Source of the DNA: Gymnorhina tibicen
Lineage: Eukaryota; Chordata; Aves; Passeriformes; Artamidae
NCBI GenBank assembly: GCA_013399875.1
Contig: VXAZ01008245.1
Coordinates: forward strand, 280-64,279
Reading direction: 5' to 3'
DNA length: 64,000 nucleotides
The notes beneath the pieces are model-generated. The model saw only the letters and a program-made list of their open reading frames with translations. It made no database searches and was not told where the DNA came from. Below are positions 5,202 to 64,000 of this stretch, piece by piece; the first letter of the stretch is position 1, and every line of letters begins with the position of its first letter. The translations under genes were made by a program, and so were the position numbers.

Positions 5202-5216
5202 CTACATAAACTGTAT
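5202..5216 (-). CDS. PICALM-like exon 22 (last coding exon, IQFM stop)
   Basis: Only 15 coding nt follow a TTGTTTCACAG acceptor: ATA CAG TTT ATG TAG. This gives the C-terminus IQFM, identical to the end of human PICALM. That agreement supports both the splice and this terminal exon. The exon continues as 3' UTR to the left. Confidence 0.92.
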   Translation of the reverse strand: MQFM

Positions 5217-8200
5217 CTGTGAAACAAAGATTACGTATTAATGCCACTTACTTAACAAATGGTTTCCTAAGGTTTTAGAATAATGAATCTGTTTGACTGC
5301 CTTGTTACTTGTAAGTTAAATCTATAGGCTTTGGCACTTTAGAAAACCCCAAAGAATTTGGGGTACCTCAGAAGACTGAGGTATTTGGATGACAGGAGTA
5401 CAGCTTCTCCAGTGTGAATGATCTCTTGTCCATGCCTTTTCCAATCCCCCATCGCCTGATCCTTCAGGAAGCTTCCAACACTGGCCTGCTCAGTATGACT
5501 AAACCAAGTATCCAGCTAATGTCATAGGGAGACTAAAACCTACATACCTTCACCACTCCTGTTTACTTAATACTGAAACAGTGAGAGGTAATAATCTGAT
5601 TTTTACTTTCGTCCTTGCTTTCTGCAATTTCATCGTCTGAATTTGCCTCCTCACCAGCAAAAGCTCCTGCCCTTGACTGAGAACCCCTCACTTTCATGTG
5701 CAGAAATACACCAGCAGCCCTTCATGAAGCATTTGGCTGTGTTTACCAAGGCTAAAGTTTCAGTGACATCACAAGATTAAAGAGCACCGTTCACCTGAGT
5801 TTCAGAAACAGGTGCAAAAGGATTTGTTGGCCTTAGACCAGGCTGTGTATACATCATTGACTGGGGTGCCATCAAAGGAGCAGCTCCAACCTGAGGAGGT
5901 ACCTGTAAGAAGAAAAACCCACAAAACAAATATATAAAAGATATCAAATATATAAAATTCCAACTACTTCCAGAAAATACAGCTTTTTGCATTTTAAGTA
6001 TAGTAGAAAATAAACATAAATACACACACACAGAATAAAGTCAAAGCTTTTAAAAACCCCTGCTATACAAACCTCAGTTATCTCTTTCAATGCAGTATGA
6101 GAAACATACCAGATTTCACACGCTATTGCCAACACATTTAATTTGAAGGATGGTTTGAACATCATAATGCACGACATGAAACCTACTGGTAGAGACAACT
6201 CAGTTTTCAGGAATACACAACAAAGCACGTTTCTTACCATTCCGTATACAGGCACTTGAGGTGTGGTCAATGGGTATGTGATAGGAGCAGGTACCTTTAA
6301 TCAAGAAAATTTTAATATATTTTAGAGAAACTCATGCATATTTAGTAATACATATAAAACTTTGAAAAACATATATTTTTCAGTACTTAAAATAACCAAT
6401 GTATTTACAAGAAATTGACTTACATATCCAGGATAGTGTACTCCATTCTGGCATAGCAAAAGGATAAGATAGAAAATTATTTAATAGGTATTCATGCTGG
6501 AAATTCTAACTAAGGGATGGCTTCAAGCCCAGTACCATAACAGTCTGTAACTGCTTAACTCATTTATTAAAACAATTAAAGTGTGAGGGAAAAAAGTGCA
6601 AGGACAGTAGCACAGTAGCATCAGTAATAAGAGATAGAAAGCTACCACTAGTATGACTTAAAGCAAAATTAGAAATTTTACTACACCTAGCCAGATTTGA
6701 GCATATTGCTTGTAAAGCATGTGTGTGAGAAGCTTTTAGAGGGCATGGCGTGCAATGCTCCTTCTTCCTCCCATTATGTGAGGAGGGCATAGAAAAGAAG
6801 CCGAGAAAGCCAGGGACCATTCAGCTTAAGAAGTCAACAGCAACAGATGTTCAGCCAGGTCAGCATTGCCCCCATACTAACAACTGATGTCAGCAACACA
6901 TCACAATATGAAAAAAGAAAAATGAAGAGCATTTTAAGCCAGAAATACCTTGTATCATGATATGTTCACAGGCACAGCAATGCATGTGCTTCATAAGGCC
7001 ATGCTTCGTTAAGCAGTGCTAATTATACTGAAAGCCAAGTGCTGGATGAAACACTTGGCAATGGGATAGGATGCAGTGGTACATGAATTGGAGGGTTAGT
7101 TCTGAGTGCCAGAGGCCCAGCCAGGACACTGAGACCTTTGCAGTTCTGAGGCACAGATTTTAAAGAGGCTCATAGCTGAGCTAGATCTTCACATCATTAA
7201 TTTTTGGGAGTTCCAGGCAAATGCATGAGCAGACACCTGGCATAAAACACTCAAATGCTTAGACCTGATGAACACATGAAATAAAAACATAACTTTAAAT
7301 CCACAGTGATCAACGGTTGCTAAGGCACCCTCTATGTTCCGGAAATAAAAATGCATCAGCATTCTAACAACACATTCTAGAGCACCTAGATGGGATAAAG
7401 AGATCATATGGTCTCAAAAAGTCTTACATAAAAGTGCAACACAACTGTGCCCTCTCATCAAATTTTTTTGTCTCATTTTTGAGTCCAATACTGTATTTAA
7501 TACTGTATTCAACTTTTCTAATTCTGAGTGAGCATAGTCATGTAAGACAAGGAAAATAAGCATTAGAGGCAAAACTATTCTTATCGCAAAATGAAGTCAG
7601 ACAGCAGTCCAAAATTCCCAGCAAATGTGATAATTATCCTAATTGTACATATAACTGAGATGAACATTCTACTTCCCTCTAAGACAGCTATATTTTAGAA
7701 GTGATTTATATTTGTATGAATATATTATGAATACAACACACTGGAAAAATCTTTTTAAAGCAAAGAAAAGTCAGTTGCCTAAAAATATCCCTCTTAGAAA
7801 TGAAAATTCTTCATTTAATTAACTATAAAAGATACACTTAACATTTTGTACTGTATTAAAAATATGAAGTTGCTGTTGAGCGTTATCAAAAGTCCAAAGT
7901 GCTGCCTGACCTCATTATTAAGGTGCCTTGCAGGGGTTGCAGCAGTTTTTCATTATAAAACTGAAAAAAGAGCAAAGACTGCAAGAAACAGCAGTTTTGC
8001 CCTTAAAACACATTCTCAGGATTCTTAAAGGTGGATGTTTGTGTGCACATGTGCGTGGGAGGGGGAGTGGGAGCATCTCAAACATGCACATCAGGAATTT
8101 TCTGGACTGGGATAATTTGTTTCAATCCAAAAAGAATTTATGAAGTGAGACAGGTAATCAGCCTTTCACTTGAGACATTAAGTCCTCAATGGACAAGTTT

Positions 8201-11200
8201 TACAGTGAGGGGAAATAAAGCATGCTAAAATCTCTACCTCATTCAGTATGATCCTATGAGCATTCCCTGCTACCCCCAGTCTTGTATCAAATGCCTTTGC
8301 TGTTCTTTATAAATTAATTCAAGCAGAGAAGCAGCATTTGCTAGAATGAAGTGTAATTGCATAGTACAGAAATTACCATGTGTGGAATAGTGGGTAAGGG
8401 AGTCGGGTTCCACGTGGTCGATGTGCTTGTTTTTGCTTGCCAGTTTGTTCCACCAGTAAGTTTTTTCTCTGTAGGCTGAGACCACTGCATATCTGATCTA
8501 AAATGAAACCATGGTGTTAGTTTTCATGGAGGGGCAACAGCTAGAGTAAAACAACAGAACAGGAAACCAAAACATGCCTTAATGCATGCACACAGCTGAA
8601 ATCTGAAGAAACACTCAGGATTTCAGTAATTACTTATGTATCTGTTCTCCAGTAAGTGTGAAATCTGGGGGTTCTGTTTATGTTGAAAGTGAACTATCAG
8701 TACTGCACTGTACAATATAATAACTGGAGTCTTACATAACTTTTATTTAGGGTTTCATAAAAGTACTTCAATAAAAATACAGCAATTACAAAACTAACTA
8801 AAGTGAGCTACTTCAAAAGTTAAGATTGGCCATGTTACGGTGGCTGACCACAAACACACTGTTCCAATGCACTTCTCAATTATTTCAGATTATTTCAAGA
8901 GTTGAGATTCTTGCCACATTAGTGCCAGAGACTATCAAAGTCACGTGAGAATATTCTAAGTACATATACGCACTTACTTTTTGGATGGAGTTCCTCCAAA
9001 GCCAAGATCTGTGGGAGAAAAGAAACAGACAAAATCCTTAAAGCATTTTAATTTGGGAGGGAAAAAAACTCTTGTTTTACTTCCAGTAACAAATGGGAAA
9101 GTTAATTTTAAAAGCTTCACACTTACTTCCTACTAGATTAGCAAGTGAAGAATCAAGGTCATTTGCCAAAATTTTTCCACTTTGCTGGGTGGCTACAGTG
9201 GCTCTTTGACTTTGTGGTGGTACTGTGGGTTGCAATACATCATCTAGAAAGTTAAAACCTAAACAAAGAAAATAAAAGCAACTGTTAACAAAACGGTTAC
9301 ATTGCATTTAATAAACAACACCCATAGGCCAGGGAGGTATTTTCTTTATAGAACAGTAATTTGAGCATTTATATGTGAAGGTTCAACATGATTAAAATAT
9401 TTAAGACTTTGACAGAAGCATAGTTTAACTTATTTTTAATGGAATACTGTATTGTACCGACTAATCTAAAAGACCTTATAATTGTACTTCAACAATACTT
9501 TGCTATACAGAAGAAAGACTAACTCAGGTATTCTTCAAGCAACACACACAACCGGTTCTGCACTTCTGCAAGTGCTCTGCCTCTCAACGGAGTCAGAAGG
9601 AAGTCATTATCACGTATCAGGAGAAAGCACAGAAGACAAATGAACACGAGCTTACCCATTAGGAGACATCCAGTGGGCCACGTTCAAAGTTCGTTCCCCC
9701 AGAGAGAGAGGAAACAGTTATTACACAGAGAATGAAATCGGTCAAAGCTAATTTTAAAGTAAATAACTACAACTGAACTGACTGCCTCTTATCAGCCCAT
9801 AATCACCTTGCAAATATATTAAGTTATTAAATTTTCAACTGCAATAGCAATTATGCTAAATTGTTAAGCAACTGTTGCCTGTAGGGTATAAATTAGTCAT
9901 AAGGCAGTTTTTACCACTTGCAGTCCTGTACTCTGGTGCTGTAGATTTTCCTCCAAAAACAGCATCAAAGTCCACATTAATTGTTGAAGACGTGGTACTC
10001 GGAGGAGCTGAATGAAGAGGAAAACCTGAAAAAAAAAGTTGAGTAATGAAATACACCTGTGAAGTACTAGCACTCATTCCAGTGAAACCAGAAAGTTTTA
10101 AAAAACCAAAAAAATCAAATTACCATCAACAGTCACAGGATGATACACAGAAGCATATGTTGGTTTATGACCACTAAAGTCATCTTTGCAAAAAGAAAGA
10201 AGAAAAGAAGATCAGTTTTAAAGAGAAAAAGGAAGAGGGAACCCAACAATTACATCTGCAGTTAAAAATTATGAATTTTTACTATTATAAAAAGGTTTTT
10301 TATTTTACATATTTGAAAAGTCAAGTAACTCCTGCATTCCCCATTACAAAAGAGAAAGGAAGTTGCAGTTTGAAAGAAATCAGCAGATTTCAGCAACACT
10401 GCAAATCTTAGGATGTCTAGGCTGGGCAAGCAGAATAAAATAATAATTTATTTCAACTATAGAAATAAATGTTTAAGGAAACATATAATTTACTACACCT
10501 GGAATTAATGCACCACTTTCACTTGTAAATAAAAAGTGAAGATTGGCCCAAACCACAAAAAGATTACATGGCCCACTTTATTAGCATTATGATCTCCAGT
10601 TGCAAATAAATTACATGGGGTTTGTTTTTTTACCACTAAACAGTTCCACTGTTTGTTTGGAGGAAAAAGAAGAATTGATGAAAGGGGTGGCAGATTTTAC
10701 AGCTTCTTCAACTGGCTTCATGTCAAAGATGTCCAGATGAGGTGGAGAACCAACACAACCATTTGAAGACGAGAAAGGACCTTTCAGACGCAGAAGTGAA
10801 GGAAAGAATACAGAGTACAAACAATGGAAAAGAAAAACAGACTGAAATGATTGAATATGTGAATCTCTAGACAAAGTCAAATTGTAAATATTCCACCTAA
10901 TGGTCAGCCCATTTAGATACAAATTTTTAGTTTCAGATAAAAATCCTAACAGCTCTCTATTTAGGGAAAATATTTCTAGTATTGACACCGGATGGGAGGG
11001 GGAGAATGACAGAACATATATCAAAGAAGTTAGATACTACATTTTTGGCTTCAATCTACCTTTTAAATAGCATATATGCTATCAATTCCACCTATTAAAA
11101 CACTAACATTTACCATGGTGTTAACATTGTCTTCTTTTGGCATTTAAGCCATTTCTTTGACATCTAACCTGACCATTCTTTGGAAGGATGGGTGAAGAAA

Positions 11201-14200
11201 CTGGAGTCCACAGCTTTTTTACAAGAACTCTGAAGTTACCAACACCTTTTAAATGAGAAGTATATTAGACATTGCTTAATTAAATGGAAATATTAGTCCA
11301 GGATCTTTTCAGTTACACCTGCTTAGGTTTTATTTCCTAGTATTTTTCAACTTTGATCTTTAGTTACATTTCTTCTCCCTGTCCCCTTTACTGAACAGTT
11401 CTGCTCCTTTGTTCCATGAACACTAATGCTATGTTCATGAAAGTTTGTCAGAGTTTTCAGATGATTTCCTTCATATTTTGTTATGAATGTTTAGATGCAA
11501 AGTAGTTAAGGTTTAAGATGCAGATTCAATTAAGTATGAACCTTGCATTCTAAGAATTCCCTTATCATTTAGACAGTCAAATCAAGGTATGAGCTCACCT
11601 CCCCAAGCACTGCTTGCTGATGTTGATATAGCTGGAGTACTTTGCACAGTTGGAACAAATGCAGGCTGAAGATCAAAGAGATCACTAGAAAGGTTGGGCA
11701 TGCTGAATAAGAAATGAGAGAGAGAAATATGAAGATATGTAACAGGCATTGTATTCTTGCTTTTATGAACACTCGTACCAATCTCATTTTCTCTTATTCG
11801 CTAGCAGCCCATCAACAATAGTGGTACAACAAACTGGTAATTAAGCACTTACTGACAGAATTCCTGTGGGTACACCAAGAAAGCATCAGCAAAAGGTACC
11901 TGAGAGGTAACTAGGATCACAGTTTTGCAGTTCACTGTGGAGCTACAGGCCAGTGCAGTAATTTCTGCTTCTTTCAGATAACAAAGTATCTCTCACCTAT
12001 TTGTTGTGGGTGCTGGTGCAGCAAAGAGGTCAACAGCCACAGTGGTATTCACACTTTTTCCTGATAAAGTGCTTGGGGATGCTGATGTGGAAGTGGAATT
12101 TGATACTACAGAGATCTCTCTTAATCGCTGTTCCTGAAAGATGAGAGAGACAGCTGGCATTTTAGTGTTACTAGCTTATTAACATTTTAGTCCTGGAGAC
12201 CTTTTCCAACAAGAAAATTTTAATTATGGTCTTAATAAATAAAACAGTTATTCTTCTGTAAAGTCCTAAAACCAGAGAAATAATTGAAATTAGAGATAGG
12301 AGTATTTGTTTTAACAAAGCATGTAAAAATCAAGGTGAGACTTGATGTTTTAAATAATTATTTTTTAATCCATAACTGCCTAGATGTAAATCACTTCTAG
12401 TGAAGCTACACATTCCAGGCTCCCTCCATAGTCACTCAGAGAAACAGCTCAATGGACCTTTGTTCAGGAAGACTCATCTCCCTACTTTATGAGTCTCATC
12501 ATGGTTCAACTGAGACATTCAGAAACTAGCGTGCCAACGTGCATCCCAATAATAAGGTAGCAACATAACAACCTTGTTACATTAATTTCAGGTTTACATC
12601 CCTCACTACTTCTAGATACGTCCACTGCATTTTTACAGCACATGTCAAAGCATGGGTTTTACACAGCTCACATTCCTCACACAGAACACTGAGTGACCCT
12701 GCAAGCTTCCTCACCATACACTACTTTATCCAGTTACAAAAAATCTTGGGATACAAAACTTGTTAAAAACATTGTACCTTAAGTGCCTGCAGTCTAACTT
12801 GTTCCTCCTCCAACGCCTGCTGCTTTTCTTTCTCATCCATCCGGCTGAATGACATTCCTGTACTGGCAAGTGTGGAAACAGCACTGGATAGGGCACTGGC
12901 TCTAAAATCAGCAATAATTTAAAAAAAAGTTATTAAAAAAGCCACAGTCAGGTATACATCACTTACAGGTTTATCATCAAGTGCCTTATCTAGTTGTGTG
13001 TCATCCTCATCCCCAGTCACTTCTTCCCTTACTCTCTGGTACATAAGAGCAGACACCCCAAAACTAGTTTGGTGACAAAGAGGCATGAGTACACAGAGTG
13101 ACTCCCTCGAGTTTCAGTGGGTAGGAACTGGAAAATGTGGAACATAGCAGTTGTCTTTTCTCTTTAAAGTTATCTAGACTAGACTGGAATGTTACTCAAA
13201 TGGCTGAGGTGCAGAAAGCTTGTTTGTACACCATGTAACAGCGAAGAAAACACAGCAGTTATTGCCCATTTATTATATATATGAACAGAATATTGTGGCA
13301 GTGAATCCTTAGATTCCCGAAAAAAAAAAATCTGAGGCGAAAGACAGCTAATTGGGAAAGTAGCTCAGCCTGGTACATTTATCAGTATTTACCAAGTTTC
13401 TGTGGGAGAACGTCTGTGCCAAAAGAGATCTCTCATTATTCAGACAGAAGTATTTTCATACATCCTGATACTGTACTTGACAGAAAGAATAACACAGTTT
13501 CTTTCAGCACAACACATCTAAGCTAATTTGGGTGTTCTGAAGAGGGACTGAAGAACTTTTATGAGAAGGTTAAGATAAATTCATGGTCTGAGAGATTGAC
13601 CATAAATATATAAAGATAAATAATAACAATTCAGATAAATACCATCCTATCTTGGGTAAGAAGAGTATCAAAATCCAAACACTTTATAAATCTTACAAGT
13701 CAAGGGACTTTAAACAAGTAAAAGCTAAAAAGAACAATATACAAGGTCTCAGCTCAGTGATTTATTACAACATAATCAGAAGTCTGTCTGAGACACAGCA
13801 GACATACCTACATTTCAAATGTGGCTAAGCTATCAGACTATTACTCACTAGATACTTCATTTATATTTCTAGGAAGATACATTCAGAAGTGAAGAAAAAT
13901 CAAGAACACCACATGACTGAATTCTGAAAATTGTTAGAATGACAATGACAAATCTTAACTATGGGCATTGTTGTAATTCACTGGGTGCTCACCTGCTGGC
14001 AGCAGAGACTTCCTTTGTTTTCTTTCCCTCCACAGAAGCCAAATGCTGTTCCAGTGCCTCAAGCAAGCTGCTGGGTGCCTAAAATTAAAAGTATTTGTAA
14101 AACACTGCTTCTATCAACACATCATTGTTTAGTACACAGATTAGTTTTCTCACCAACTAAAAACAAACAAAAACTCACACATCAGTAATTGTGCCTTTGG

Positions 14201-17200: not shown

Positions 17201-20200
17201 TACAGTGAAACAGAAGGTTTACCTCTAGGTATGACAAGATACTTCTGGCTTACCTGCCATGGAATCCCCTGTGATAAAAACCAGAAGCTCTTGAAAAATA
17301 TTATTTTCTGTGAGTTTTATTGCTTTAAAAATCTCATTAAGAGCTGCAAAGTGTAAGTATTGAATACATGTAATGCATGTGAGAAGCTACTATACATATT
17401 TCCCATATATAATAAATACACAGAAGAGAATACTGTCTCGAGAAGAATGATTACTACGATACACACCAACCTTTAAAAACACAAAGAACAAAATAATTGG
17501 GTTAATCAATAAACAATGTACACTGACCTGAGTAAGATCTGGAATGTCACCCTGATCAATTCCAACTTGCTGGGTTTACAAAAAAAGAAGAAAAAAAAGT
17601 ACATAACTACATGCAGTGGCAATGAAAATAAAACCCAGCAGTGTCTGAATGTTACACAGAAGCTAGCATACTGAAAAGGGATATTCATAATTTTCTGAAC
17701 TGGTACAAGTTTCACTAGGAACACATCTTAGAAATCACAAATGCATTAAAATGCATCTCAAGGCAAACTCAACTTTTCATCCAGCCCAACTTCCATGCAG
17801 AAAAGCCTACTAGAAGCATTAGAAACAGCCACATTGCTTACTGAAACTACTTCTCCATTTTTTAGCACTTACAGTAAAGGAAAGCCCTATAAATATCTTT
17901 AAATAGACTGTAACATTCAGTTTATGCATTCTGGAGCATTCATAAAATTTATAACAATACTTCAGAAAGTTTACTGTGGTCTTACCCAAGAATCACACTC
18001 CATGTTAATAAGCATATACAATCTTTAAAATACCTAATCTCTAGAATACTTCCTTTTATAGTGAAGTTAAGCAAACAATCTGTTTAAAGGTATTTTTGTG
18101 AATATTGATACTGTACCAATATAGACAGCTAAATTATATCCTTTCCATACATGTAGATTTATTTACCTCTGCTACTTTGAGGAACTCTGACAAATTGGTC
18201 ATTCTGGCTAGAAATTTTTTGTAAATATCCAAGCCTTCTTTGCACTGGTTCTTCTTCATATCAAAATATCTTTCTGAGGATGCAAATAGAACTCTTGTAA
18301 GATAATACACTCCCCAGCAAAAAGCTGACACTGTATTATAGAAGTTAATTTGAGACAAACTTCAGTAAGAGAACAGACAGGAGTAACTCAAAGCTATTCA
18401 GATTTTCAAGCTTACATGAATACCTGAAACCTTTTGTAGTAAGTCAGTCAGTACAAAACCACAGATTTTTCTGTTTCAGTGTATTAGACTATAATGCAAA
18501 AATTTATTAAACATGGATGAGAATCAGTGCAAATTGTTAAATTAGGTATTATGGTGAATATTTTCAAAAAGTCAGCTTATTAGCTGGCAATGAGATAAAT
18601 GATTTTATAATTTGAAAATATTCCTGGTATTTATTTACCTTTTTAGACCTTGTCTCAATACATTTTGATACTGAAGTGGCTACATATATTGGACTGACCC
18701 ACCAAAAGGAGCATCAACCACGTCCATCACTTCTTATGCTTTTGCCATATGTACGTACAAATAAGTAACTGAGTAAAAACTAATGGATTAACAGAACAAA
18801 CTGATCGTTCCATTCATAAATTTGCTTAAATAATGAAAAAGCTTTGTTAAGAGCTCATCACCCTTCTACAAAAACCCCTACATTTCATCTAATCAGCTCA
18901 GGCAGATTCAGGTACCAGTCAAAGGTGACAAGTCAAGCTTTAAAGAAAGTACAGGAAAACAGAATTCAGCCATACTGTGAGTAAATTAAATATTCAAAAC
19001 ACCACATATCTCACTAAACCTTTACAGTCCAATTGCAAAGGTTATCCATTGCACTTTTATAGTATCTTTGTTTCAGTCTCACCAATCATCCTCTCATTTC
19101 ACTTTCTGTTTCAACATGCATTCTTCCAGGTAGAAGCGGATTTGTAAGCCTATGCTCCTGGTCACTAAAACTAAGACAGGCTTCATTTAACAGCAATAGA
19201 GCAGAGACAATTTATTAGGAAACTGCAGTCAGAAATTGTCTATGTTCTTTAGCTTTCTCATTATCTTTCACAAAAATTCAAAAGCTAAAAAAAATCTCAC
19301 ATACCTAAAAGATTAATAATCCCCTCATTGTATGCTGCAAAAAGTCTAATGGAATCTTTAAAGAGGAGCATAAAGGCAGCATTTATAACACCATTTGTTA
19401 GTTCATTTGGATTTGCCTGTGTAGAAAGCAACGAGAAAGTAAATTAGTATTTATCAAAATAATAAAACTCACTTCAAAATGAGAGAGTGTTACTTAACAC
19501 TGAGCTTAAAGTACTTACATCAAAATCAAGGAGTGCATCAAGCTGGTTCTGTATGATTGGAAGGGTTTTCAGAAGCTTTTCAGGATTCATAGTTCTCATC
19601 ACTCCATCTATCCTACAGAGTAAAAGACACACATTTACAAGATACAGAGACCTCAGCACACATTGTACTGTTGCAACAATACAATATTGCTTCAAAGGGC
19701 CAAAAGAACAGCATTCTATGACAAGCTCAAGAACAACTGTGTTCCCCCTTCTCCCACCCCCCTGCAATAGGAAAAAGATCAAACAGAAGTAGCAGTAGTA
19801 GTCTTACCCTCTTTTCATTTTGGTGAAGTCAACTGCTACAAGTCTATATGAAAGTGCTTTTTCATTCAAGTATCTGCTGTATCGCCTAATGAAGGTAGAC
19901 ATATCATAGCCTAAAAGTTAAGCATTTATAAGTTAGACATTTTGAAGGGGTACAGTTTTTCAGTTATTTTCAAGAACTGTTCTCCTACTAGCCTATTTTA
20001 CATAAAAAGTCCTTCCTGGGCACCTTCCAGGGTCTTGAGATGGGATGTTAGTTTCTTTCCAAGTTGCTAAGATTAGGAAAGCAATTGCTGCAATTATGAC
20101 AATAAACACCTAAACACGTTAAAGTATTAGACAAGAACCAAGCATAAAAGATTAGGAAAGCACCAAGCAGTTCTTGTTAAGATGTTCTAGAAATTAGAAT

Positions 20201-23200
20201 AAAAATATATTCCTAGTAAAATGCTGAAGAGTTTGGTAACTTATCTGCCATCCCTCAAAACCCACATAAAAACCCAAAAATGTTTTCTACCATTAGCAAG
20301 TAATTAAAGGACTTATCAGAGATCTGAAGAACTTCTCCCTATTTATACAGCACATCCTAGTTACCATTCCATGCACCTTAACAGTCAATATTTACTCCTG
20401 AGGCTTTAAAATGCAACAACAAAAATTATCGTGCTGATAATTCATCAGGTTTATTCGAATGAACATCAAGAGTTCACTTTGTAAAATTTACAGCTGTGTG
20501 TGCAATGCTACATATATTATAGACAGATTTCTAGCGCTCACCTAGGTAACTCAGGATCTCACTTTCCCTGTGTCTACATTCTTGGCTGGACATTCTTTGG
20601 TGTCTCATGCAATAAAGATCAAAATACCCTTCCATTTAAATGTCATTTGGTCCCTAGCGTGCATCAACACATGTACCACGACCGAGAAAAAAAGGAGTAG
20701 AGTTATTCCCTTCAGTGAAAGATCCTTACCCTGCATGGCACTTTTGTCCAGGTAGTTATTTAAGTTGAACAAAGTGTTCCGGGATGCAAGATACTGGATA
20801 AAGCGCTGTTGGCGAAGAAGAAGTTGAGGATTTAATTGTTGTGAGAGTCAAAACACAGAAGGATATTACAAGCAAACTACACTTACCTTGTAACTGTTTC
20901 TAGTAACCTCTATCAACAATAGGAATTAGTTAAAAGGGAAAAATTTGGAGGAAAACCTGAAAATACTCATTAGGAAAGCCTCTGAAGTCCAAAACTCTAT
21001 TTGGCAAAAATAATAAATTTAAACTAAACAAAGAGACATCACTGCCCATGAATAAAGTACAAATAATCCTAGAGGAAGCTGCTTAGTTAACTTTGTACTT
21101 TAAAACAGACAAGCTGGAAAACACAAAACAAAAATACTACTTGCATTATCCAAGCTCCTGAAGTTTGACACAGCTCTACTGCTGTAGTGTGAACAGCACA
21201 CTGTTTGACAGGTCATTTCCATCAAGTTCACAGAGCTTTGCAGAGAGGAGGACCACCAAGCTATCCCAGCAGTTTAATGGCTGGAAGGCACTTTTAAGAA
21301 TCATCACTTCAATATTACCAGTAGTCAACAATCATTTCTTAGATCAATGACAACACACAGGTTCTGCCACCTGACCAAAGTTTAGCTTCTAACGTAAGGC
21401 TTGTTCAAGAGATGCTACATTTCTAGCACCATGTTATTGACTAGGAAGCTTTTGATAAATTGTGATGAAATATTTTAAGTGAATTAAAAGCAGTAGAAAA
21501 ATGTTTCAGAGGAATGTTAACAGCAACAACATATGAAGACTCAACCCATTAGATGATGTCTTGCAAGATCAAATATTCTAGTCACCATATTCCTCTTCCC
21601 TTTAGCAAGTATTCTTTCTTATCTGTTATTAGGTTGGCTGCACATTTATGGAGTGCTAACAAGACTCTTCTGCTGTGCTCTTACTGATAAGCGCTACCCT
21701 AATGAAGTAAAGCTCATCAGAAATTTTTCGAGTCTTTATTCTAGAAAGGTCGCTCATTCCCTCACAGACCAACCAAGATACCTACAGGTAAATTGGAAAC
21801 ACTGATATATTTTGGTATTGAAATCATGAAGGGATTTTTTTTTCCTCTGGACAAATACTTTAGAGCCATCAGCAGAGGAAAAACAAAATCTTTGAAAAAC
21901 TGAAGTACGTATCTAATGCTTTACATTTGGAGACTATTTTTTAAAAGCTGTCAAGGAGACTTTAACAGAACGAATCATGTCTTACCTCATTTCCATACAT
22001 CATGAGGTGGTGTGTTGTAATTAGAGCTTTGAACACTACAACCCAGCTACTGTTTGCCGTTCTCTCAAAGAGTGTATCTGCCAACTGTGGAATATTCACA
22101 TTCATTTCATTTGTGCACTGTATTAGATCTAAATTAAAGGGGAAAAAAAATCAAAGCATTACAATGAGTTACATGCTCAGAGGATCAGCATGTTATTTTG
22201 TATTTTTTACATTGAGAATTCATACTGGAAGCATTAACATTAGTTCTGTGTTTAAGAAATAATTGAGCTCCTTTACCCTCCTTACTCAGATTCACTACAT
22301 TTTACTGAAAGGCTCCAAGTATGAACTTCAAAGGCATTTCAATAATTTTACAGAGTCCCAATATCTCTTATATTATCAATAAATAACCTGTTCCATTAGA
22401 AACACAATGGAGCCCAAATTAGTCTCTGAAAGCCAGTGCAAGCAACCTTCTGGATGCTCCGTGCCTGAGGCCACTCAATCTAATGAAAAAAGTGAAAATC
22501 TGAGAGGAAAGAAAGAATTGAGACATCCCAACCTCATGACATCAACAGGCAGCACAAGCCTGCCACTCTGACCTAGGCCTAAGTACTCACACATGATGGC
22601 AAATGAGATGCTACAAATCTGAAAAATAAGCCTCTTTTCTGTAAGAACTAAGAGCAAGAATTTCCATCTATCCACCCTTCCACTTAGCTGAAAAAGCACC
22701 TGGTCACAAGCCTACTGAGTCTTTTGTGGTGAATCATGGTAGGTCTCAGACTTTCATATAAAAAAGCTCTTCATGTCCTAGAGACTGACAATAAACTCAA
22801 TAGTAGAACATTAACTTGGGAGGTCAGAGACAGAGAGGTTCAAGACTGCCTGAGATTTGGTACAAAACCAGAACAGGCTCCAGCAGACACATGGAAAGAG
22901 CACCTGCCTGAGAAGGCTAAAGAAGGTACTGGCTGAGAAAAGAGCAGAGAACTGAATCCAGGACTACTCTAAACCCCTCAAGACGTGCACATCAGACATT
23001 TACTTCTCTCTCTGTGCTAAATTTGGCTCAGGTGTGATCAAAGTACACCCTAAGGACTGGGCAAGGCTAGTAAAACAAACATTTGGTTTGAAAAGCTTCC
23101 TTTGTGGCCTCTCATTTAAGCTGAGCCTGTGAGCAGCCCATTGGCAGCAGAGCCCATTACTGTTTGCGGGACTTGTCTGGGTAAGGACCCGAAGAAGGGC

Positions 23201-26200: not shown

Positions 26201-29200
26201 TTTCTTCCATTTTGTCACAGGACTGAAGCTGCTCTAAGACAGATGTAAGAATTAAGACAATTTTCCTCAGTCCCAGCAGTCTTAAAAAAATGTATTTTCT
26301 TCTGGAAAGTTGCATCATAAATGGCACATTACAAAAATGTAAAACATCAGAGCCACTTCAGCCAACTTTCTTAATGTAGCCAAGGAATGCAACCAGTTTT
26401 GCTGGAAGACTTAAAAGATAGCACTCAACTGTTACAAACATTGTTATGCCAATGTGCTCTTATAGTGCACATCTGAGAGCTATCTTTAAGTTTCAGTTAT
26501 ATAACAACAGCTAAATCTGAATTTTGAGTTACTTTACCAGAAGCAAAGCAATTCAGCTATTCTGTTCCACTCCCCCACTAAACAAGGATACAGGACAGAC
26601 AGCCCATAATGTTTTTTAAAAAAGCTATATACAACTCTGTAGTAGGTTGAAACCCCCATTTATAGATTCCAACAATATTAACTATTTTTTTGTTCAAGTT
26701 AAATTTCCTCAATTGTTGTACTGAAAAACTTCACAAATTGCTAAAGAACTTCAAATGAATGACAGCCACTGGTCTGTGTAAAGAGCTCAAGAAAATGCCT
26801 TTGTCCTGTATCACAACTTACACATCTCTGCAAGAACCACACTGCATCAGCATTCACTTGACAGTCAAAAGCTCTGGCTGCCAAAAGAAAGAATGGGCAG
26901 TACCAGAATTACAGTGCCAGAATTATTACTTCTTAGAAGGTTTCCAAAGCTTGTATACATATGGGAGTTCTAAGTTTTGATTAGCAACATTACCTTCCCC
27001 ACCTCTGTGTTTCTTAAGTGGGTTGTGTACAAGTTAAACAGGAGCTGTTTCTTCATTACTGTGTTAATTTACAAGTTTAAGCTGCAATTAATTTAGGGGT
27101 TTGTTTTTTCCAAGTTTTGGTCTACACACAAGTCTACTCTGCCAGTTACCAGCTTGGCTACAGCTTTAATTTATTCTTTTTTCTTGTGACTCTTCAGTAG
27201 TTAGAAAAGAGGAGGTTTGCCTCCACAAGCATACCAGCCCCACTCTGCTGCAAACCAGACTCAGGAGGCTGAGGGAAGTGAAAGAAACCACACTAGGAAA
27301 GAAGAGACAAAACGTTCAAGTGCTCCACTAAGAGGAACGATCAGCCTCTATATAACATTTTATATTATCTGAAAATATTACAAAATACTACAGAAATAGA
27401 CCTGCTGACTTATTTAGGACACTGTGACCTACTTTAAAAGGTAAATCCCCAAGTATTCCCATTGACATTGCTTAGGTTTTTGGGGTTGGCTTTTTGTGGG
27501 TGTTTTTCCACTCTTAAAGTAAAATATGACTATACTACTCAGCAATTAGTACTCAGACAAACCCCAAGACTCTTAAATACTAGTTCAGACACTGCATATG
27601 TAACATCTTGCTATAAAAACCTATATTGTAATACCACAGTTTTTCTTGCTGAGGAAACTTGGCAATAAGGGGATTTTAAGAATTAATCTGAACAGAGGGC
27701 ACGAACTGATACTCCTCCACAATCTCTGATACAACTACAGCAACTCTCAAAAAAATGTTCCTGGTAAAGCTTTTTCCTGAGCAGCAATTACAAATACCAG
27801 ATGGTGTAGCATTTTGAATGACACACACACACACATAGTGACCAGAGTACAACTACCAGAGTTTTACATTAAATCCAAGCTATGTTTTCCTTCATAATGT
27901 ACTTAATTTGGGAAGTACTTGCACTGTATCTTAGAAAAACATACTCTGTGAGTTTTTTTTCCAGAGATTACAGTATTTCATGTCTACCATTTAATACAAG
28001 TAAGTCTCGTGTACAAGTGAAAAAATAGGAAGTGGCCCTCAAAGGGCTGCAGATGTTTGAAAAGCAGTGCCTGGTATGGTTGATGAAGACAGGAGCATGT
28101 TTATTGGGATTTTTTAACCCCTTACTGACATATTTAAGGTACCATATTTCAAATCTTTTTTTTCCCTACCTCACCAAATCATTCCTCTGTTTCAGATACC
28201 AAGAAACAACAACAAGATTTTTGTCCATCTTAGGCTGAAGTCTGAGCAAATGAATTACACCAGAAAACAGAACTCATCTGGCACAGAAGGGGACCTTCGG
28301 GAGACTGACTGACAGCTCTAAACAGCCTGGGAGCAACAGGAACTTGTAAGTCAAATGGCAATCTCAGTTTATAGTATTCCCAAGTTAAGAATTGTTCCAT
28401 GTTTCCATTTTCTTCTTTTGTAAGGGCGACTTATAGCAGATGACATTATTTCAGTAATATTTTCAAACAACACACTAACTCTTTTAGGATTCAGAATCTT
28501 TCAAACTATTGAGCAAACTGTCACCACTTTCTGGCTTCCTGTTATGTTGCCATTTATGGACTCAAGGGTTACCTTATTAACTTGTACCACACTCAGAACA
28601 CAGGACCAGAAGAAATAAGGTAACTTTAAAAAATAAATTGCCAGTTATCCAGTTTTAAGGCTTTTAATTTCAACACGATATCTGCAATATTCACTACTGT
28701 AGCTGGATCCCACCCATCCAGATCAATAGAAAATGAACTATGTATTTGGCTGGTTGTAACTGTTTGATCCACACCGAAAGCTCTCACACACGCCAGTATG
28801 AGCAGACCAGTGTCACAGGGTCACACATCCCAACTATCCTCAAACAATATAACCCAGAACGCTTCTGCCGAGAGCCTGAACAGCAGCTCCTTTAGTACCA
28901 CCAACTTGTACGAATCCTGCAAAACTACCAGCCTGTCTTTGAAAAAACCAGCAAAAGGCTTCAAGCCTTTTTTCCTCTCCTTAATGGGAACACACACACT
29001 TATTTCGCTTTTACGAGCCGGGGAGCGGGTGTGTACAGAACGTACAAGGTTTGTGCACTTTTGAGCAGTCAGACAGGAACTCCAATTGCTACTCTATTAC
29101 TAAAGCCTGAAGCGAAGCAACACCACCGACTTCTGTAGATTTCAGGGGTAACTCGGCATCTTTTGGTAAAGGGGTTGTAAGATAGTAAGTTTAAATGTAT

Positions 29201-30381
29201 TAGCGGCAATATACTCTCATCCAGAAGAAATGCACTGCTCAAACCTACGCCCTTTCCTTTACCTCGCTTCTAATCTTCTACCACGTTTCGCGAGCCGTAA
29301 GACAGAAAACTATGGTATTTCAGGAAATATTCGAAATATTTAAACGGCTGTAGTCCACTGGATGCACGGAAGGACGAAACAGTGCTTTAAAAAATTAAAT
29401 TCTGGCTTGCAACAGTAAACACACCTTTTCCCCAGGTGCCGGATTAACAAGCACCACTGTATCCAGAGCACAAGAGATAAGCAGCTCGCACCGGGAACAG
29501 CTCATGAGGTTGGAACATTTTTGCTCCCCGGGCGCGACAGGGTGTTACAAATCTCGCTCCCTCCACGTGGAAAATAAGTTCTGGAGATCACGCCAGTCAG
29601 GTCCACCCAGATTTACACGACACCCCCCTCCAGGTGCAAGCGGCCGGCTCTCCCCTGTCCCCCGCCCGCGGCCGGAGGGCCCGGCTGACGGGCTGCCCCC
29701 AGCTCGGAGCTCCAACCCCGGGCCCACCTGGCCCCGCCGCCAGGTCCTACTCACAGTCCAGGTGCTTCTTCTTGGGGCCCATCACCTCGTGGGTCGTCGC
29801 CTTGCACACAGCCTTGGCGACGGCCGAGCCGGTCACACTGTGCTGCGCCGCCGTGATGCGGNGAGCGGGGTCGGGGCTCCACTGGAGCGGGGCCGGGAGC
29901 GGGATCGGAACGGGGCCGGCGGCAGGAGCGGGGCAGGAGCCGAGGCGCCCCGCCCGCCAGGCCTCAGGTGTCCGTGGGCGGTGGGGACCCAGCCCCCGCA
30001 GCCCCGATGCGCTCCGTGACTCGCCGCCCCCAGCACCCCAAAATCACAGAATGAGCTCNCCACGTGGAAAATAAGTTCTGGAGATCACGCCAGTCAGGTC
30101 CACCCAGATTTACACGACACCCCCCTCCAGGTGCAAGCGGCCGGCTCTCCCCTGTTCCCCGCCCGCGGCCGGAGGGCCCGGCTGACGGGCTGCCCCCAGC
30201 TCGGAGCTCCAACCCCGGGCCCACCTGGCCCCGCCGCCAGGTCCTACTCACAGTCCAGGTGCTTCTTCTTGGGGCCCATCACCTCGTGGGTCGTCGCCTT
30301 GCACACAGCCTTGGCGACGGCCGAGCCGGTCACACTGTGCTGCGCCGCCGTGATGCGGTCGGTGATCGACTGCCCCGACAT
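5202..30381 (-). CDS. PICALM/AP180-family clathrin assembly protein, probable third paralogue (22 coding exons, complete)
   Basis: Spliced minus-strand gene; exons are listed separately. The joined reading frame is open for 2064 nt (687 residues plus stop), with GT-AG introns and matching phases throughout; human PICALM is about 650 residues. Residues 1 to about 289 form an ANTH domain, which in this family binds PI(4,5)P2 and R-SNAREs at the plasma membrane. The lysine patch GPKKKHLD lies at 36-43. The remainder is low-complexity Ser/Thr/Pro/Ala sequence with DLF and DIF motifs that in this family recruit clathrin and AP2. A block around [11 protein letters not shown] and a C-terminus ending IQFM follow. 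ANTH and C-terminal residues are PICALM-like in places ([30 protein letters not shown]) and SNAP91-like in others ([20 protein letters not shown]). It is too divergent from PICALM, as I recall that protein, to be its direct orthologue. Family assignment is near certain; paralogue identity is inferred. Confidence 0.93.
5795..5902 (-). CDS. PICALM-like exon 21
   Basis: Encodes [20 protein letters not shown], then [16 protein letters not shown] (about residues 648-683). It aligns with IPPQMGSVPVMTQPTLIYSQ and PVMRPPNPFGPVSGAQ of PICALM. The donor is GTGAAC. Read-through past it would instead end the protein five codons later (VNGAL, then TAA), giving an alternative C-terminus. Confidence 0.94.
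6238..6294 (-). CDS. PICALM-like exon 20
   Basis: Encodes [19 protein letters not shown], aligning with the APPVMAYPATTPTGMIGYGI stretch of PICALM. It is 57 nt in phase 0/0 with a GTAAGA donor. The acceptor (GATTAAAG) has a poor pyrimidine tract, so skipping is possible. Confidence 0.88.
6424..6447 (-). CDS. PICALM-like exon 19 (24-nt micro-exon, probably alternative)
   Basis: Encodes NGVHYPGY between a CAG acceptor and GTAAGT. It aligns with NGMHFPQY, which I recall as a segment included in only some human PICALM isoforms. It is symmetric (phase 0/0), so inclusion or skipping keeps the frame. Confidence 0.85.
8377..8497 (-). CDS. PICALM-like exon 18 ([16 protein letters not shown])
   Basis: Encodes [20 protein letters not shown], then [20 protein letters not shown] (about residues 580-620). 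It aligns with DVNWSQPGEKKLTGGSNWQ of PICALM. The donor GTAATT directly follows the ATG codon. This leaves a phase-0 boundary that suits alternative use of the next exon. Confidence 0.95.
8978..9008 (-). CDS. PICALM-like exon 17 (31-nt micro-exon)
   Basis: Encodes LGFGGTPSK, completing an N codon at the start and a K codon at the end (about residues 570-579). Skipping it would shift the frame, so it should be constitutive. The acceptor is TTCTCCCACAG and the donor GTAAGTG. Confidence 0.9.
9127..9258 (-). CDS. PICALM-like exon 16 ([11 protein letters not shown] block)
   Basis: Encodes [20 protein letters not shown], then [13 protein letters not shown] and [10 protein letters not shown] (about residues 526-569). 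[11 protein letters not shown] is a hallmark of the PICALM and SNAP91 tails. LDDVLQPTV corresponds to the LGGLLKPTV segment of PICALM. Confidence 0.95.
9915..10025 (-). CDS. PICALM-like exon 15 ([10 protein letters not shown] block)
   Basis: Encodes [20 protein letters not shown], then [16 protein letters not shown] (about residues 489-525). [14 protein letters not shown] aligns with the LNVDFESVFGNKST block of PICALM. Confidence 0.93.
10124..10183 (-). CDS. PICALM-like exon 14
   Basis: A 60-nt exon in phase with its neighbours that encodes [19 protein letters not shown] (about residues 469-488). I recognise no motif in it. Support comes from a good acceptor (TTTTTGCAAAG), a GTAATT donor and matching phases. 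Confidence 0.85.
10634..10780 (-). CDS. PICALM-like exon 13 (SNAP91-like LDIFDMKP segment)
   Basis: Encodes [20 protein letters not shown], then [19 protein letters not shown] and [10 protein letters not shown] (residues 420-468). LDIFDMKP resembles the LDLFAMKP motif I recall in SNAP91, not the DPFSATVDAVDDAIPSLNPF segment of PICALM. The phases at both ends fit. The donor is GTAAAA, which is weaker than consensus. Confidence 0.9.
11599..11702 (-). CDS. PICALM-like exon 12 (SSDLFDLQP motif)
   Basis: Encodes [20 protein letters not shown], then [14 protein letters not shown] (residues 385-419). DLFDL matches the NDLLDLQ clathrin-adaptor motif of PICALM at the same place. The acceptor is TTATTCAG and the donor GTGAGC. 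Confidence 0.93.
11997..12133 (-). CDS. PICALM-like exon 11 (DLF-containing tail)
   Basis: Encodes [20 protein letters not shown], then [20 protein letters not shown] and APTTN (residues 340-384). VDLF is a DLF-type clathrin/AP2 motif. The exon ends two bases into a Ser codon before GTGAGA. Confidence 0.93.
12778..12901 (-). CDS. PICALM-like exon 10 (start of tail, charged helix)
   Basis: Encodes [18 protein letters not shown], then [20 protein letters not shown] and ALK (residues 298-339). The [15 protein letters not shown] stretch is a strongly charged, probably helical segment also present in PICALM. The donor is GTACAA. Confidence 0.94.
13993..14078 (-). CDS. PICALM-like exon 9
   Basis: Encodes [20 protein letters not shown], then TKEVSAAS (about residues 270-297). 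It lies at the boundary between the ANTH domain and the disordered tail. It is separated from exon 8 by about 3.45 kb of intron. The donor is GTGAGC. Confidence 0.95.
14079..17527 (-). other. Intron 8 of the PICALM-like gene
   Basis: About 3.45 kb with no exon-like ORF that fits the phases. It contains an A/C-only low-complexity stretch at about 15198-15286. Nothing else was recognised. Confidence 0.8.
15198..15286. repeat. A/C low-complexity stretch
   Basis: About 90 bp made almost only of A and C (AACCAACCAACCAAC and similar units) in intron 8. The ORFs crossing it (Lys/Asn/Pro-rich on plus, Phe/Gly/Leu-rich on minus) are by-products. Confidence 0.85.
17528..17569 (-). CDS. PICALM-like exon 8 (short, end of ANTH helical region)
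   Basis: A 42-nt in-phase exon encoding [14 protein letters not shown]. It has an acceptor after TAAACCCAG and a GTCAGT donor. The motif QVGID.GDIPDL is diagnostic of the PICALM/SNAP91 family. Confidence 0.95.
18167..18273 (-). CDS. PICALM-like exon 7 (ANTH domain)
   Basis: Encodes [20 protein letters not shown], then [15 protein letters not shown] (residues 220-255). This exon is PICALM-like; SNAP91, as I recall it, has FFEMKKGQCKDALEIYKRF here. Confidence 0.96.
19305..19416 (-). CDS. PICALM-like exon 6 (ANTH domain)
   Basis: Encodes [19 protein letters not shown], then [18 protein letters not shown] (residues 183-219). In PICALM this helical segment is part of the surface that binds VAMP-family R-SNAREs. 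The donor is GTATGTG. Confidence 0.96.
19519..19612 (-). CDS. PICALM-like exon 5 (ANTH domain)
   Basis: Encodes [18 protein letters not shown], then [13 protein letters not shown] (about residues 151-182). Human PICALM has ADGVMRTM here, so I (Ile) replaces A (Ala). The donor is GTAAGTAC. Confidence 0.96.
19808..19910 (-). CDS. PICALM-like exon 4 (ANTH domain)
   Basis: Encodes [20 protein letters not shown], then [15 protein letters not shown] (about residues 117-150). The sequence is near-invariant across the family. The exon ends two bases into a glycine codon before a GTAAGA donor. Confidence 0.96.
20730..20805 (-). CDS. PICALM-like exon 3 (ANTH domain)
   Basis: Encodes [15 protein letters not shown], then [10 protein letters not shown] (about residues 92-116). 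The exon starts in phase 0 after a CAACAG acceptor and ends one base into a glycine codon before GTAAGG. Confidence 0.96.
21986..22128 (-). CDS. PICALM-like exon 2 (ANTH domain)
   Basis: Encodes residues 44-91, including [33 protein letters not shown] and MMYGNE. This is among the most conserved parts of the ANTH domain. FKAL resembles SNAP91, while [17 protein letters not shown] is PICALM-like. The acceptor is TTTAATTTAG and the donor GTAAG. Confidence 0.96.
25825..25863. repeat. A-rich low-complexity stretch
   Basis: Purine run dominated by A with scattered G in intron 1. Confidence 0.8.
27821..27834. repeat. (AC)n microsatellite
   Basis: Short AC run of 14 bp in intron 1 of the PICALM-like gene. 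Confidence 0.85.
29563..29861. repeat. Assembly duplicate block A (copy of 30060-30358)
   Basis: These 299 bp match 30060-30358 with a single C/T difference (29659 versus 30156). The copy includes 3' part of exon 1 (29755-29861) but stops at a lone N (29862) before the start codon. The truncation at N and near identity point to an unmerged contig overlap, not a biological duplication. Confidence 0.92.
29862..29862. other. Single-N assembly join
   Basis: Lone N separating block A from block B; the sequence on the two sides is not contiguous in the genome. Confidence 0.9.
29863..30058. repeat. Assembly duplicate block B (copy of 30632-30827)
   Basis: These 196 bp are bounded by N at both ends (29862 and 30059). 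They match 30632-30827 with one C/A difference (30038 versus 30807). This is a small redundant contig placed out of order. Confidence 0.92.
30059..30059. other. Single-N assembly join
   Basis: Lone N between block B and block A'. The following base starts the repeat of 29563 onward. Confidence 0.9.
30060..30358. repeat. Assembly duplicate block A' (functional copy with exon 1)
   Basis: Second copy of the 299-bp block, offset by 497 bp. It begins directly after the N at 30059 and continues into unique sequence that holds the start codon, so this is the copy to keep. Confidence 0.92.
30252..30381 (-). CDS. PICALM-like exon 1 (start codon, ANTH helix 1)
   Basis: Encodes [16 protein letters not shown] through MGPKKKHLD (residues 1-43, plus 1 nt). 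The basic stretch KKKH at 38-41 is the family's PI(4,5)P2 site. The ATG at 30379-30381 matches the conserved family start; an in-frame ATG one codon upstream gives MMSGQ but is not the family start. The donor is GTGAGT at 30251-30246. Part of this exon is repeated at 29755-29861 by an assembly duplication. Confidence 0.95.
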
Positions 30382-30558
30382 CATCGCCGCGGTCCTGGCG
30401 GCGGCTCCGCCGCGATCCCCACGCAAGGCCGGGGCGGCGGCTCCCCCGCGGCCGGGGGCGAGCGCAGCCTCCCGGGGGAAGCGCGCCGGCGGCTCCCTCC
30501 GGCGGGAGCGCTCGCCGGGCTCCGCCTCAGCGGCTCCTCTCGGCCAGTCGGCCCACAC

Positions 30559-30559: not shown

Positions 30560-30566
30560 TCACAGA

Positions 30567-30578: not shown

Positions 30579-30631
30579 GGCCGCGGCGTCAGGTGACCGC
30601 GCGCCCGCCCCGCTCCCGCCCCGCCGCTGCC

Positions 30632-53337: not shown

Positions 53338-53814
53338 TTTATTGTTTCAGTATTTTAGCCCTTAGTTGATTAGTCACTAAAACCTGTCAGATGCCCGCTG
53401 CCATAAAAGCACTCCGAGCACCTCCAGCATTTGTAGGAATATCAAAAAATAGCTTTAGCAACTAGGAATTATGCAACAGAAGGAGAAGGCAGGACAAACT
53501 AGATTAATGCAACTTGTAGTGGATTTGTTAAGTGTATGACTCGTCGCAGAATCATGCCAGAAAATGGTACCATGTAGCTTACTGGTAAGGGCAGTAAAAA
53601 GGCTAATGCATTACTTGAGCCATCAGTGAACCACTCACTCACTCACTCACTCACCGTACTATGTCCAGCTGAAATCAAAGGTTTCCAGTAAAAATGCCTC
53701 TACAGACTGTAAGCATCTTACAACTCTCTCTGCCTTTGAGCTCTACTGTGGTAGCTGCTTCATTAACATCGTGGTTCCAGTGCAAAAAACCCCCTCCAGA
53801 TCCCAAATCTTCCT
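53338..53814 (-). other. GAB3: GAB3 3' UTR (proposed)
   Basis: From the stop codon to a minus-strand AATAAA (TTTATT at 53338-53343). It contains a CACT tetranucleotide run at 53632-53654. The cleavage site is inferred from the signal only; a more distal signal is possible. Confidence 0.45.
53632..53654. repeat. (CACT)n microsatellite
   Basis: Nearly six perfect CACT units within the proposed GAB3 3' UTR; likely length-polymorphic. Confidence 0.9.
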
Positions 53815-53931
53815 TTACACTTTTGACTGTCTTTCATCTGTCCATTCCTGCTTAGTGTTCTGTAAAGCTTGAGTCTTCTGTTCATCTACCTGGACATAGT
53901 CCACTCTCTGTTCCTCAGACAGAAAAGGTTT
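53815..53931 (-). CDS. GAB3: GAB3 last coding exon
   Basis: Encodes KPFLSEEQRVDYVQVDEQKT, then QALQNTKQEWTDERQSKV and TAA. VDYVQVD is the second SHP2-binding tyrosine motif. The C-terminus is almost identical to human GAB3. The acceptor is TGTCCCACAG. Confidence 0.96.
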   Translation of the reverse strand, partial: KPFLSEEQRVDYVQVDEQKTQALQNTKQEWTDERQSKV

Positions 53932-63619: not shown

Positions 63620-64000
63620 CTGCAAGGAGACAGAGGTCAGGACGCGAGCTTTCTTTTTCTCCTGTCTGCAAGAACACAGCAGACAAAAAAAAACAACCCC
63701 ACAGTTTGGGACAAGATCTGTCCCTTCCCTCTGAGCTGGCCTGGAGGCTGGGGCACTTTGTGGAGCACCTCGGCAACAGCAGGTGTCTGGAGGGAGGCTG
63801 TGTGTGAGATCCTCAGCCACCCACCCTGGAAAGGGACAGGACCAACATATGAAGCTCAACCACTAATCTGTGCTATGAAAAGCACCCTGTAAATTGGATT
63901 AGGCTGGTGGTCCCCTGTTGTGCTTGGGAGCCAGCCCTGAGTGGCAGGGCTCCCGGGGGCTGCGTGCCCCAGTTCCACCCCCGGACAGGCAGAGGGTGGC

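What the first reader, a model, noticed from the sequence alone, without database searches (positions are those of the whole stretch)
5202..30381. Likely third PICALM/AP180 paralogue beside GAB3
The full 687-residue gene mixes PICALM-like exons ([23 protein letters not shown] end) with SNAP91-like ones ([24 protein letters not shown]). Avian PICALM should be nearly identical to human PICALM, and this protein is not. A third vertebrate family member, intact here and not known to me in mammals, is the simplest reading.
Basis: partly seen in the sequence, partly recalled or inferred. Interest (0 to 1): 0.8.

Follow-up and report, generated by a model that had tools for sequence, protein, structure and literature searches.

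The report
Third PICALM/AP180 gene of jawed vertebrates
A bird genome carries, besides the two clathrin-adaptor genes known from humans (PICALM and AP180/SNAP91), an intact third one that is shared by sharks, fishes, amphibians, reptiles, birds, echidna and, in altered form, wombat, but appears to be missing from placental mammals such as humans.

Summary
It is not the PICALM orthologue. The same unnamed assembly has a separate PICALM (exons 2-7: 210 of 211 residues identical to mammalian PICALM; window gene 187 of 211) on the contig that carries EED, and a separate SNAP91. In a maximum-likelihood tree PICALM (99/95), SNAP91 (100/99) and this third clade (97/96) are distinct; forcing birds' third gene together with birds' PICALM costs 96 log-likelihood units. 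The third clade holds sharks, ray-finned fishes, coelacanth, amphibians, reptiles, birds, echidna and a divergent wombat protein, so the duplication precedes the jawed-vertebrate ancestor. Databases name it 'PICALM-like', 'PICAL', chicken LOC772071 or 'prefoldin subunit 3'; my paper searches found no description. Most likely it works as a CALM-type adaptor (inferred): PIP2-site, helix-0 and VAMP-groove residues are largely kept, with a clade-specific L247 in the groove and GPF where human PICALM has DPF.

The parts
30252..30381 (-). exon 1 (start codon, helix 0, K28/K38/K40/H41); a further ATG lies directly before it at 30384
   Evidence: donor GTGAGT
21986..22128 (-). exon 2 (ANTH)
   Evidence: ANTH hit
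20730..20805 (-). exon 3 (ANTH)
19808..19910 (-). exon 4 (ANTH; clade-specific L136, L140, V143, M148)
19519..19612 (-). exon 5 (ANTH)
19305..19416 (-). exon 6 (ANTH)
18167..18273 (-). exon 7 (ANTH; VAMP-groove residues F240, M244, L247, L251)
17528..17569 (-). exon 8
13993..14078 (-). exon 9 (end of ANTH)
12778..12901 (-). exon 10 (linker)
11997..12133 (-). exon 11 (DLF motif)
11599..11702 (-). exon 12 (DLF motif; ends ...SSAWG)
10634..10780 (-). exon 13 (GPF where recalled human PICALM has [11 protein letters not shown])
10124..10183 (-). optional 60-nt exon ([20 protein letters not shown]), peptide present in other birds' isoforms
9915..10025 (-). exon 14
9127..9258 (-). exon 15
8978..9008 (-). 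exon 16
8377..8497 (-). exon 17 (EKKLTGG)
6424..6447 (-). optional 24-nt microexon (NGVHYPGY), peptide present in P0082
6238..6294 (-). exon 18
5795..5902 (-). exon 19 (NPF motif; ends ...SETQ)
5202..5216 (-). last coding exon (IQFM, stop)
29755..29860 (-). partial duplicate of exon 1, probable assembly artefact
   Evidence: 299-nt repeat 100% identical, Ns at 29862 and 30059
53800..63640 (-). neighbour, not part of the gene: exons of GAB3 (PPPRPPKP, PPPVNRDLKP, YLALDF, VDYVQVDEQKTQALQ); PH-domain exon at contig position 70382-70804

Best explanation
The gene is an intact third member of the PICALM/AP180 (SNAP91) family, arisen by duplication before the last common ancestor of jawed vertebrates and kept in sharks, bony fishes, amphibians, sauropsids, monotremes and, in fast-changing form, at least one marsupial. 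SHOWN: intact structure, separate clade, coexistence with PICALM and SNAP91 in the same genome. INFERRED: it works as a CALM-type endocytic adaptor. Helix 0 (I6, I10, V17) dips into the membrane, K28/K38/K40/H41 hold PI(4,5)P2, the groove (L219, F240, M244, L247, L251) sorts a small R-SNARE (VAMP), and the disordered tail recruits clathrin (DLF/DIF motifs) and EH-domain proteins (NPF). Relative to PICALM, L247 in place of I247 in the groove and GPF in place of DPF suggest altered VAMP preference and weaker AP2 coupling. Also inferred: loss in placentals, and origin in the early-vertebrate genome duplications together with the GAB2/GAB3 pair.
For: Gene model and ORF. ANTH domain: Pfam E 6.3e-78. 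289 residues aligned to PDB 1hf8 at 88.9% identity. Own genome: PICALM exons 2-7 on C1605 are 210 of 211 identical to 1hf8, against 187 of 211 for the window gene; SNAP91 on C1989 is 242 of 245 identical to recalled human SNAP91; EED is on C1605. Tree of 43 rows: PICALM 99/95, third 97/96, SNAP91 100/99 (the tool says the bootstrap had not settled). AU test of five third-gene birds plus three bird PICALM rows as one clade: delta lnL 95.7, p 6e-110; a similar test with mammal and lizard PICALM added, 41-row tree: delta lnL 93.1. Of 12 ANTH sites that set the clade apart, six (87, 140, 148, 168, 204, 247) carry one residue in 56 of 56 third-clade rows of the 86-row alignment; at five of these no row of 18 PICALM and 11 SNAP91 has it, at 204 five PICALM rows do. 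PIP2-site and groove residues K38, K40, H41, L219, F240, M244, L251 are in 56 of 56, K28 in 55 of the 55 that cover it. L219S, F240A, M244K, I247D and L251S abolish VAMP8 binding in CALM (PMC3267021, figure-legend passage); L6, I10, V17 are the key helix-0 residues (PMC4406947, passage).
Against: No expression, binding or localisation data. AP180's ANTH also has L219, F240, M244 and mostly L251, yet did not bind VAMPs in PMC3267021, so conservation does not prove VAMP sorting. Helix-0 residue 17 is M in 24 of 55 third-clade rows. Lamprey shares the third clade's L168 and L175, so these two may be ancestral. No shark PICALM and no invertebrate outgroup is in the tree; the root rests on SNAP91. 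GAB2 (C1635) and PICALM (C1605) are on different contigs here, so the shared block could not be tested. Absence from placentals rests on capped lists (120 shown of 4294 and of 761 hits), on few placental rows in the tree, and on general knowledge of the human gene set. The DPF comparison uses a recalled human C-terminus, and 2 of 33 third-clade proteins scanned (Engraulis, Heterodontus) have a DPF at another place.
Confidence: 0.88

Rival explanations
1. It is simply the avian PICALM orthologue, fast-evolving in birds.
For: Many database entries call it PICALM or 'PICAL protein'; exon layout and the IQFM end are PICALM-like.
Against: A separate, near-identical PICALM on the EED contig of the same genome; separate clade and AU rejection; over the first 330 columns it is closer to four shark proteins (91.5-91.8%) than to mammalian PICALM (85.8%).
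Confidence: 0.01
2. It is a lineage-specific (sauropsid) duplicate of PICALM.
For: ANTH identity to PICALM is high (88.9%).
Against: Orthologues with the same diagnostic residues in sharks, ray-finned fishes, coelacanth, amphibians and echidna; coelacanth and Lates have proteins in both clades.
Confidence: 0.01
3. It is a decaying or non-functional copy in this bird.
For: Exon 1 is partly duplicated with Ns beside it; residue N246 is seen in no other row of the 86-row alignment.
Against: 659 intact codons and AG/GT at every junction; in the ANTH domain it differs from the song sparrow protein P0010 at one residue only, 246; the duplication looks like an assembly artefact.
Confidence: 0.03
4. 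It acts mainly as part of a read-through product with VBP1 (prefoldin 3) rather than as a free adaptor.
For: Six of the 120 proteins listed join exon 19 (..TQ) in frame to the same VBP1 residue (EDVDSFM), in five passerines and the green turtle; many entries are named 'prefoldin subunit 3'.
Against: The other 114 lack the join (the 120 were too short by the length rule to show it); the own IQFM exon is intact; the joins may come from gene prediction on rare read-through reads.
Confidence: 0.05

Closest known systems
PICALM (CALM)
   Same: ANTH domain 88.9% identical to 1hf8, PIP2-site and groove residues, NPF and IQFM end; 64% identity over the full length to recalled human PICALM
   Different: Separate clade; 12 clade-marking ANTH sites including L247 in the VAMP groove; GPF in place of DPF at the aligned site; different locus (beside GAB3 instead of EED)
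SNAP91 (AP180)
   Same: ANTH domain 79.9% identical to the recalled human sequence; shares 10 residues that PICALM lacks
   Different: Own clade 100/99; V247 instead of L247; separate gene on C1989 in this genome
Chicken LOC772071 and bird, turtle and lizard 'PICALM-like' database entries
   Same: The same gene: orthologues in the same clade
   Different: Names only; no description found in the paper searches listed in the report
Lamprey PICALM-type protein (P0284)
   Same: Same family
   Different: Outside the PICALM plus third group, 99/94; single row, position provisional

Membership tests
PICALM/AP180 (ANTH clathrin adaptor) family | N-terminal ANTH domain | tested here: met
   Pfam ANTH 262 bits, residues 22-283; PDB 1hf8 hit
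PICALM/AP180 (ANTH clathrin adaptor) family | PI(4,5)P2-site residues K28, K38, K40, H41 (roles recalled, Ford 2001) | tested here: met
   present in the window; K38, K40, H41 in 56 of 56 third-clade rows, K28 in 55 of 55 that cover it; binding itself not testable
PICALM/AP180 (ANTH clathrin adaptor) family | C-terminal clathrin (D[LI][LF]-type, recalled) and EH (NPF) motifs | tested here: met
   two DLF, one DIF, one NPF in the window protein; short motifs, so weak evidence
PICALM/AP180 (ANTH clathrin adaptor) family | DPF motif as in CALM (PMC4184852, passage) | tested here: not met
   no DPF in the window protein, GPF at the aligned position; a feature of CALM, not shown here to be required of every member; AP2 binding through other motifs not excluded
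PICALM orthologue group | groups with PICALM in a tree | tested here: not met
   third clade 97/96, AU rejection; searches agree
PICALM orthologue group | locus beside EED, sole PICALM of the genome | tested here: not met
   PICALM with EED is on C1605; the window gene is on C1937 beside GAB3
SNAP91 orthologue group | groups with SNAP91 | tested here: not met
   own SNAP91 on C1989
2R ohnologue of PICALM | duplication before the jawed-vertebrate radiation | tested here: met
   sharks inside the third clade; coelacanth and ray-fins in both clades; no shark PICALM row
2R ohnologue of PICALM | shared paralogous block (GAB2-PICALM versus GAB3-third gene) | tested here: inconclusive
   GAB3 is on the window's contig, but GAB2 (C1635) and PICALM (C1605) are on different contigs; human linkage of GAB2 and PICALM on 11q14 is recalled

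The most novel reading that the evidence does not exclude
Jawed vertebrates ancestrally had three CALM-type adaptors. The third, with its own VAMP-groove chemistry and without CALM's DPF motif, sorts a cargo set that placental mammals have handed to PICALM, so the human two-gene picture of CALM/AP180 biology is a derived, placental condition; in sauropsids part of its output is a conserved in-frame fusion with prefoldin subunit 3.
Probability: 0.3. Interest if true: 0.75.

Novelty: new member of a known kind. Interest (0 to 1): 0.58.

Why it matters
PICALM is a major Alzheimer risk gene (PMC9776874, abstract start in the listing) and, with AP180, is treated as one of two members: PMC6912373 gives two family members for mammals (passage), and PMC4824007 describes AP180 as the paralogue that emerged in vertebrates (passage). 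A third ancient member means that results from chicken, frog, fish or shark cannot be read as one-to-one with mammals, and it offers a natural experiment: a clathrin/SNARE adaptor kept for some 450 million years (age recalled) and then, it seems, lost in placentals. It also explains why databases call the gene PICALM or prefoldin 3.

Tried and rejected
PICALM-orthologue and sauropsid-only duplicate: rejected by the own-genome search and the trees. Exon-1 tandem duplication as a real feature: rejected. GAB2-PICALM linkage in this assembly: not testable, different contigs. RAB39B neighbourhood: query not answered, not repeated. Structure prediction was not run; identity to 1hf8 made it unnecessary.

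Paper searches for a prior description: searches found 0 papers; one listed 5, 22 listed 9, 37 listed 5, 51 listed 2. One search found 144 papers with at least two terms and listed 12, none of which holds PICALM or SNAP91; the other 132 were not seen. Of these I saw passages of PMC4824007, PMC8834532 (lists eel Picalm, Picalm-like, Picalma and Picalmb transcripts without analysing the family) and PMC3473312; the rest as listings only. Searches were searches on function.

Rows and superseded results: one search's tree is superseded (one SNAP91 exon had been placed one column off); the 211-residue comparison stands. One search used 86 rows: the window, 33 proteins chosen, two references, P0010 and 49 of the 113 new proteins. 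Searches used 41 and 43 rows, dropping among others P0257 (odd human isoform, long branch) and the fast-evolving teleost extra copies. The residue counts used a hand-picked 36 third, 14 PICALM and 9 SNAP91 rows; one search recounted all 86 (56, 18, 11 and lamprey), and the report gives those counts.
Full report
Observation. The gene runs on the minus strand from the ATG at 30381 (a further in-frame ATG lies directly before it) to a stop at 5202. Twenty coding exons were delimited with AG and GT at every junction and join to an open frame of 659 codons. Pfam finds ANTH at 262 bits. The first 289 residues align without gaps to PDB 1hf8 (CALM) at 88.9%.

An artefact inside the locus. Exon 1 is present twice within a 299-nt direct repeat at 100% identity, and a second repeat of 196 nt is 99% identical. 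Of the window's three Ns, 29862 and 30059 sit at the seams and 30559 lies just upstream of exon 1. I read this as an assembly error.

Same genome. The window is contig C1937:280-64279 of a 1.02-Gb assembly. An ANTH search gave 15 matches on six contigs: C1937, C1605, C1989, C1626, C262 and C2319. Exons 2-7 read from C1605 match PICALM 1hf8 at 210 of 211 residues, where the window gene has 187 of 211; those read from C1989 match recalled human SNAP91 at 242 of 245. The short loci held for C1626 and C262 gave no tblastn match (E 0.01) to PICALM, SNAP91 or the third gene, so they are more distant ANTH genes (HIP1/HIP1R is my guess); C2319 was not examined. EED lies on C1605 at 4.846-4.863 Mb and the PICALM exons at 4.763-4.771 Mb; PICALM exon 1 was not located.

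Neighbours. GAB-family motifs lie on the same strand at 63.3, 59.4-59.2, 55.0 and 53.9 kb. A search with recalled human GAB2 matched C1635 best (most exons 69-85%), then C1837 (best exon 69%), then C1937 (PH exon at 70382-70804, 51%), so the window's gene is GAB3 by elimination. VBP1 exons start about 3.9 kb into another contig, C1638. The joined proteins of other birds and of green turtle place VBP1 downstream, which fits a contig break between the two genes (inference).

Relatives. With the 659-aa query the 120 listed of 7996 scored hits are 119 birds and green turtle. A 349-aa turtle query, which by the tool's length rule admits only proteins up to 611 aa, listed 120 of 4294: turtles, tuatara, lizards, snakes, crocodilians, birds (chicken LOC772071), echidna, caecilian, newts, frogs, coelacanth, bowfin, gar, teleosts and sharks, at 92-100% identity, and three entries without a name. 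No named placental or marsupial is in that list. A PICALM query (120 of 761 listed, 113 of them new) brought PICALM, SNAP91 and third-gene proteins of many vertebrates, among them one wombat protein, P0342.

Trees. Searches (86 rows, quick; 41 rows, careful; 43 rows, careful) agree on three clades. In one search support is PICALM 99/95, third 97/96, SNAP91 100/99; the program notes that the bootstrap had not settled. Sharks branch first within the third clade. Lamprey P0284 lies outside PICALM plus third. Coelacanth (P0248 and P0178) and Lates (P0249 and P0223) have a protein in both clades; so does song sparrow (P0332 and P0010, two subspecies). Holding birds' third gene and birds' PICALM together costs 95.7 log-likelihood units (p-AU 6e-110). 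In one search (36 rows, 330 columns) the window is 91.5-91.8% identical to four shark proteins and 85.8% to PICALM.

Residues (all 86 rows: 56 third, 18 PICALM, 11 SNAP91, 1 lamprey). Twelve ANTH sites mark the third clade: 87, 114, 136, 140, 143, 148, 168, 175, 183, 204, 247, 261. Six of them (87, 140, 148, 168, 204, 247) have one residue in 56 of 56 rows; 114 and 143 in 55, 175 in 54, 261 in 52 of the 53 covering it, 183 in 49 and 136 in 42. Against a clean picture: five PICALM rows share S204, and lamprey shares L168 and L175. K38, K40, H41, L219, F240, M244 and L251 are in 56 of 56, K28 in all 55 that cover it. Position 247 is L in 56 of 56 third, I in 18 of 18 PICALM, V in 11 of 11 SNAP91 and in lamprey; I247D abolishes VAMP8 binding in CALM (PMC3267021, figure-legend passage). 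The same paper reports that AP180's ANTH does not bind VAMPs, so the groove's outcome must be measured. Helix-0 residues 6 and 10 are I or L and I; residue 17 is V in 31 and M in 24 (role: PMC4406947, passage). Human DPF becomes GPF (recalled human tail). Wombat is 87% identical to echidna over 286 residues, lacks the 14 residues of exon 8 and sits on a long branch; of the 14 sites listed it covers 13 and agrees at 12.

Mechanism. Inferred from family membership: a monomeric, PIP2- and curvature-dependent clathrin adaptor for small R-SNAREs. Distinct cargo preference and reduced AP2 contact are hypotheses.

Origin and loss. The phylogeny puts the duplication before the jawed-vertebrate radiation. 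Its link to the 2R duplications through the GAB2/GAB3 pair is plausible but was not testable here (different contigs; human linkage recalled). Loss in placentals follows from the human gene set (recalled; PMC6912373 states that mammalian genomes encode two members, passage) and from no placental row among the 56 third-clade rows, a tree with only about five placental rows. It is not a genome-by-genome proof.

Novelty. The gene is in databases but not under its own identity. In the paper searches I found no description of a third family member. PMC4824007 (passages) speaks of CALM and AP180 in vertebrates, and PMC3473312 (passages) of AP180 and CALM in Metazoa. The library lacks most subscription papers and 132 papers were not listed, so a prior mention is possible.

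Noticed in passing
window 29563-30827: A 100% identical 299-nt and a 99% identical 196-nt direct repeat, with single Ns at the seams, duplicate exon 1 and its upstream region; probable assembly error.
   Followed up: yes
window 5795 (exon 19 end) and contig C1638:3890-8122: Six of the 120 proteins splice exon 19 in frame to VBP1 residues EDVDSFM, at the identical join in five passerines and green turtle; many entries for this gene are named prefoldin subunit 3.
   Followed up: partly
P0342 (Vombatus ursinus): A marsupial third-gene protein with a long branch and without exon 8: fast evolution or decay in marsupials.
   Followed up: partly
window exon 7, residue 246: N246 in the window, K in 53 and R in 2 of the other 55 third-clade rows: species difference or base error.
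   Followed up: no
proteins P0280, P0290, P0295, P0307, P0318: Teleosts have additional fast-evolving copies within the third clade, perhaps from the teleost genome duplication.
   Followed up: no
G000 C1626, C262, C2319: Further ANTH-type matches, not resolved; possibly HIP1/HIP1R.
   Followed up: partly
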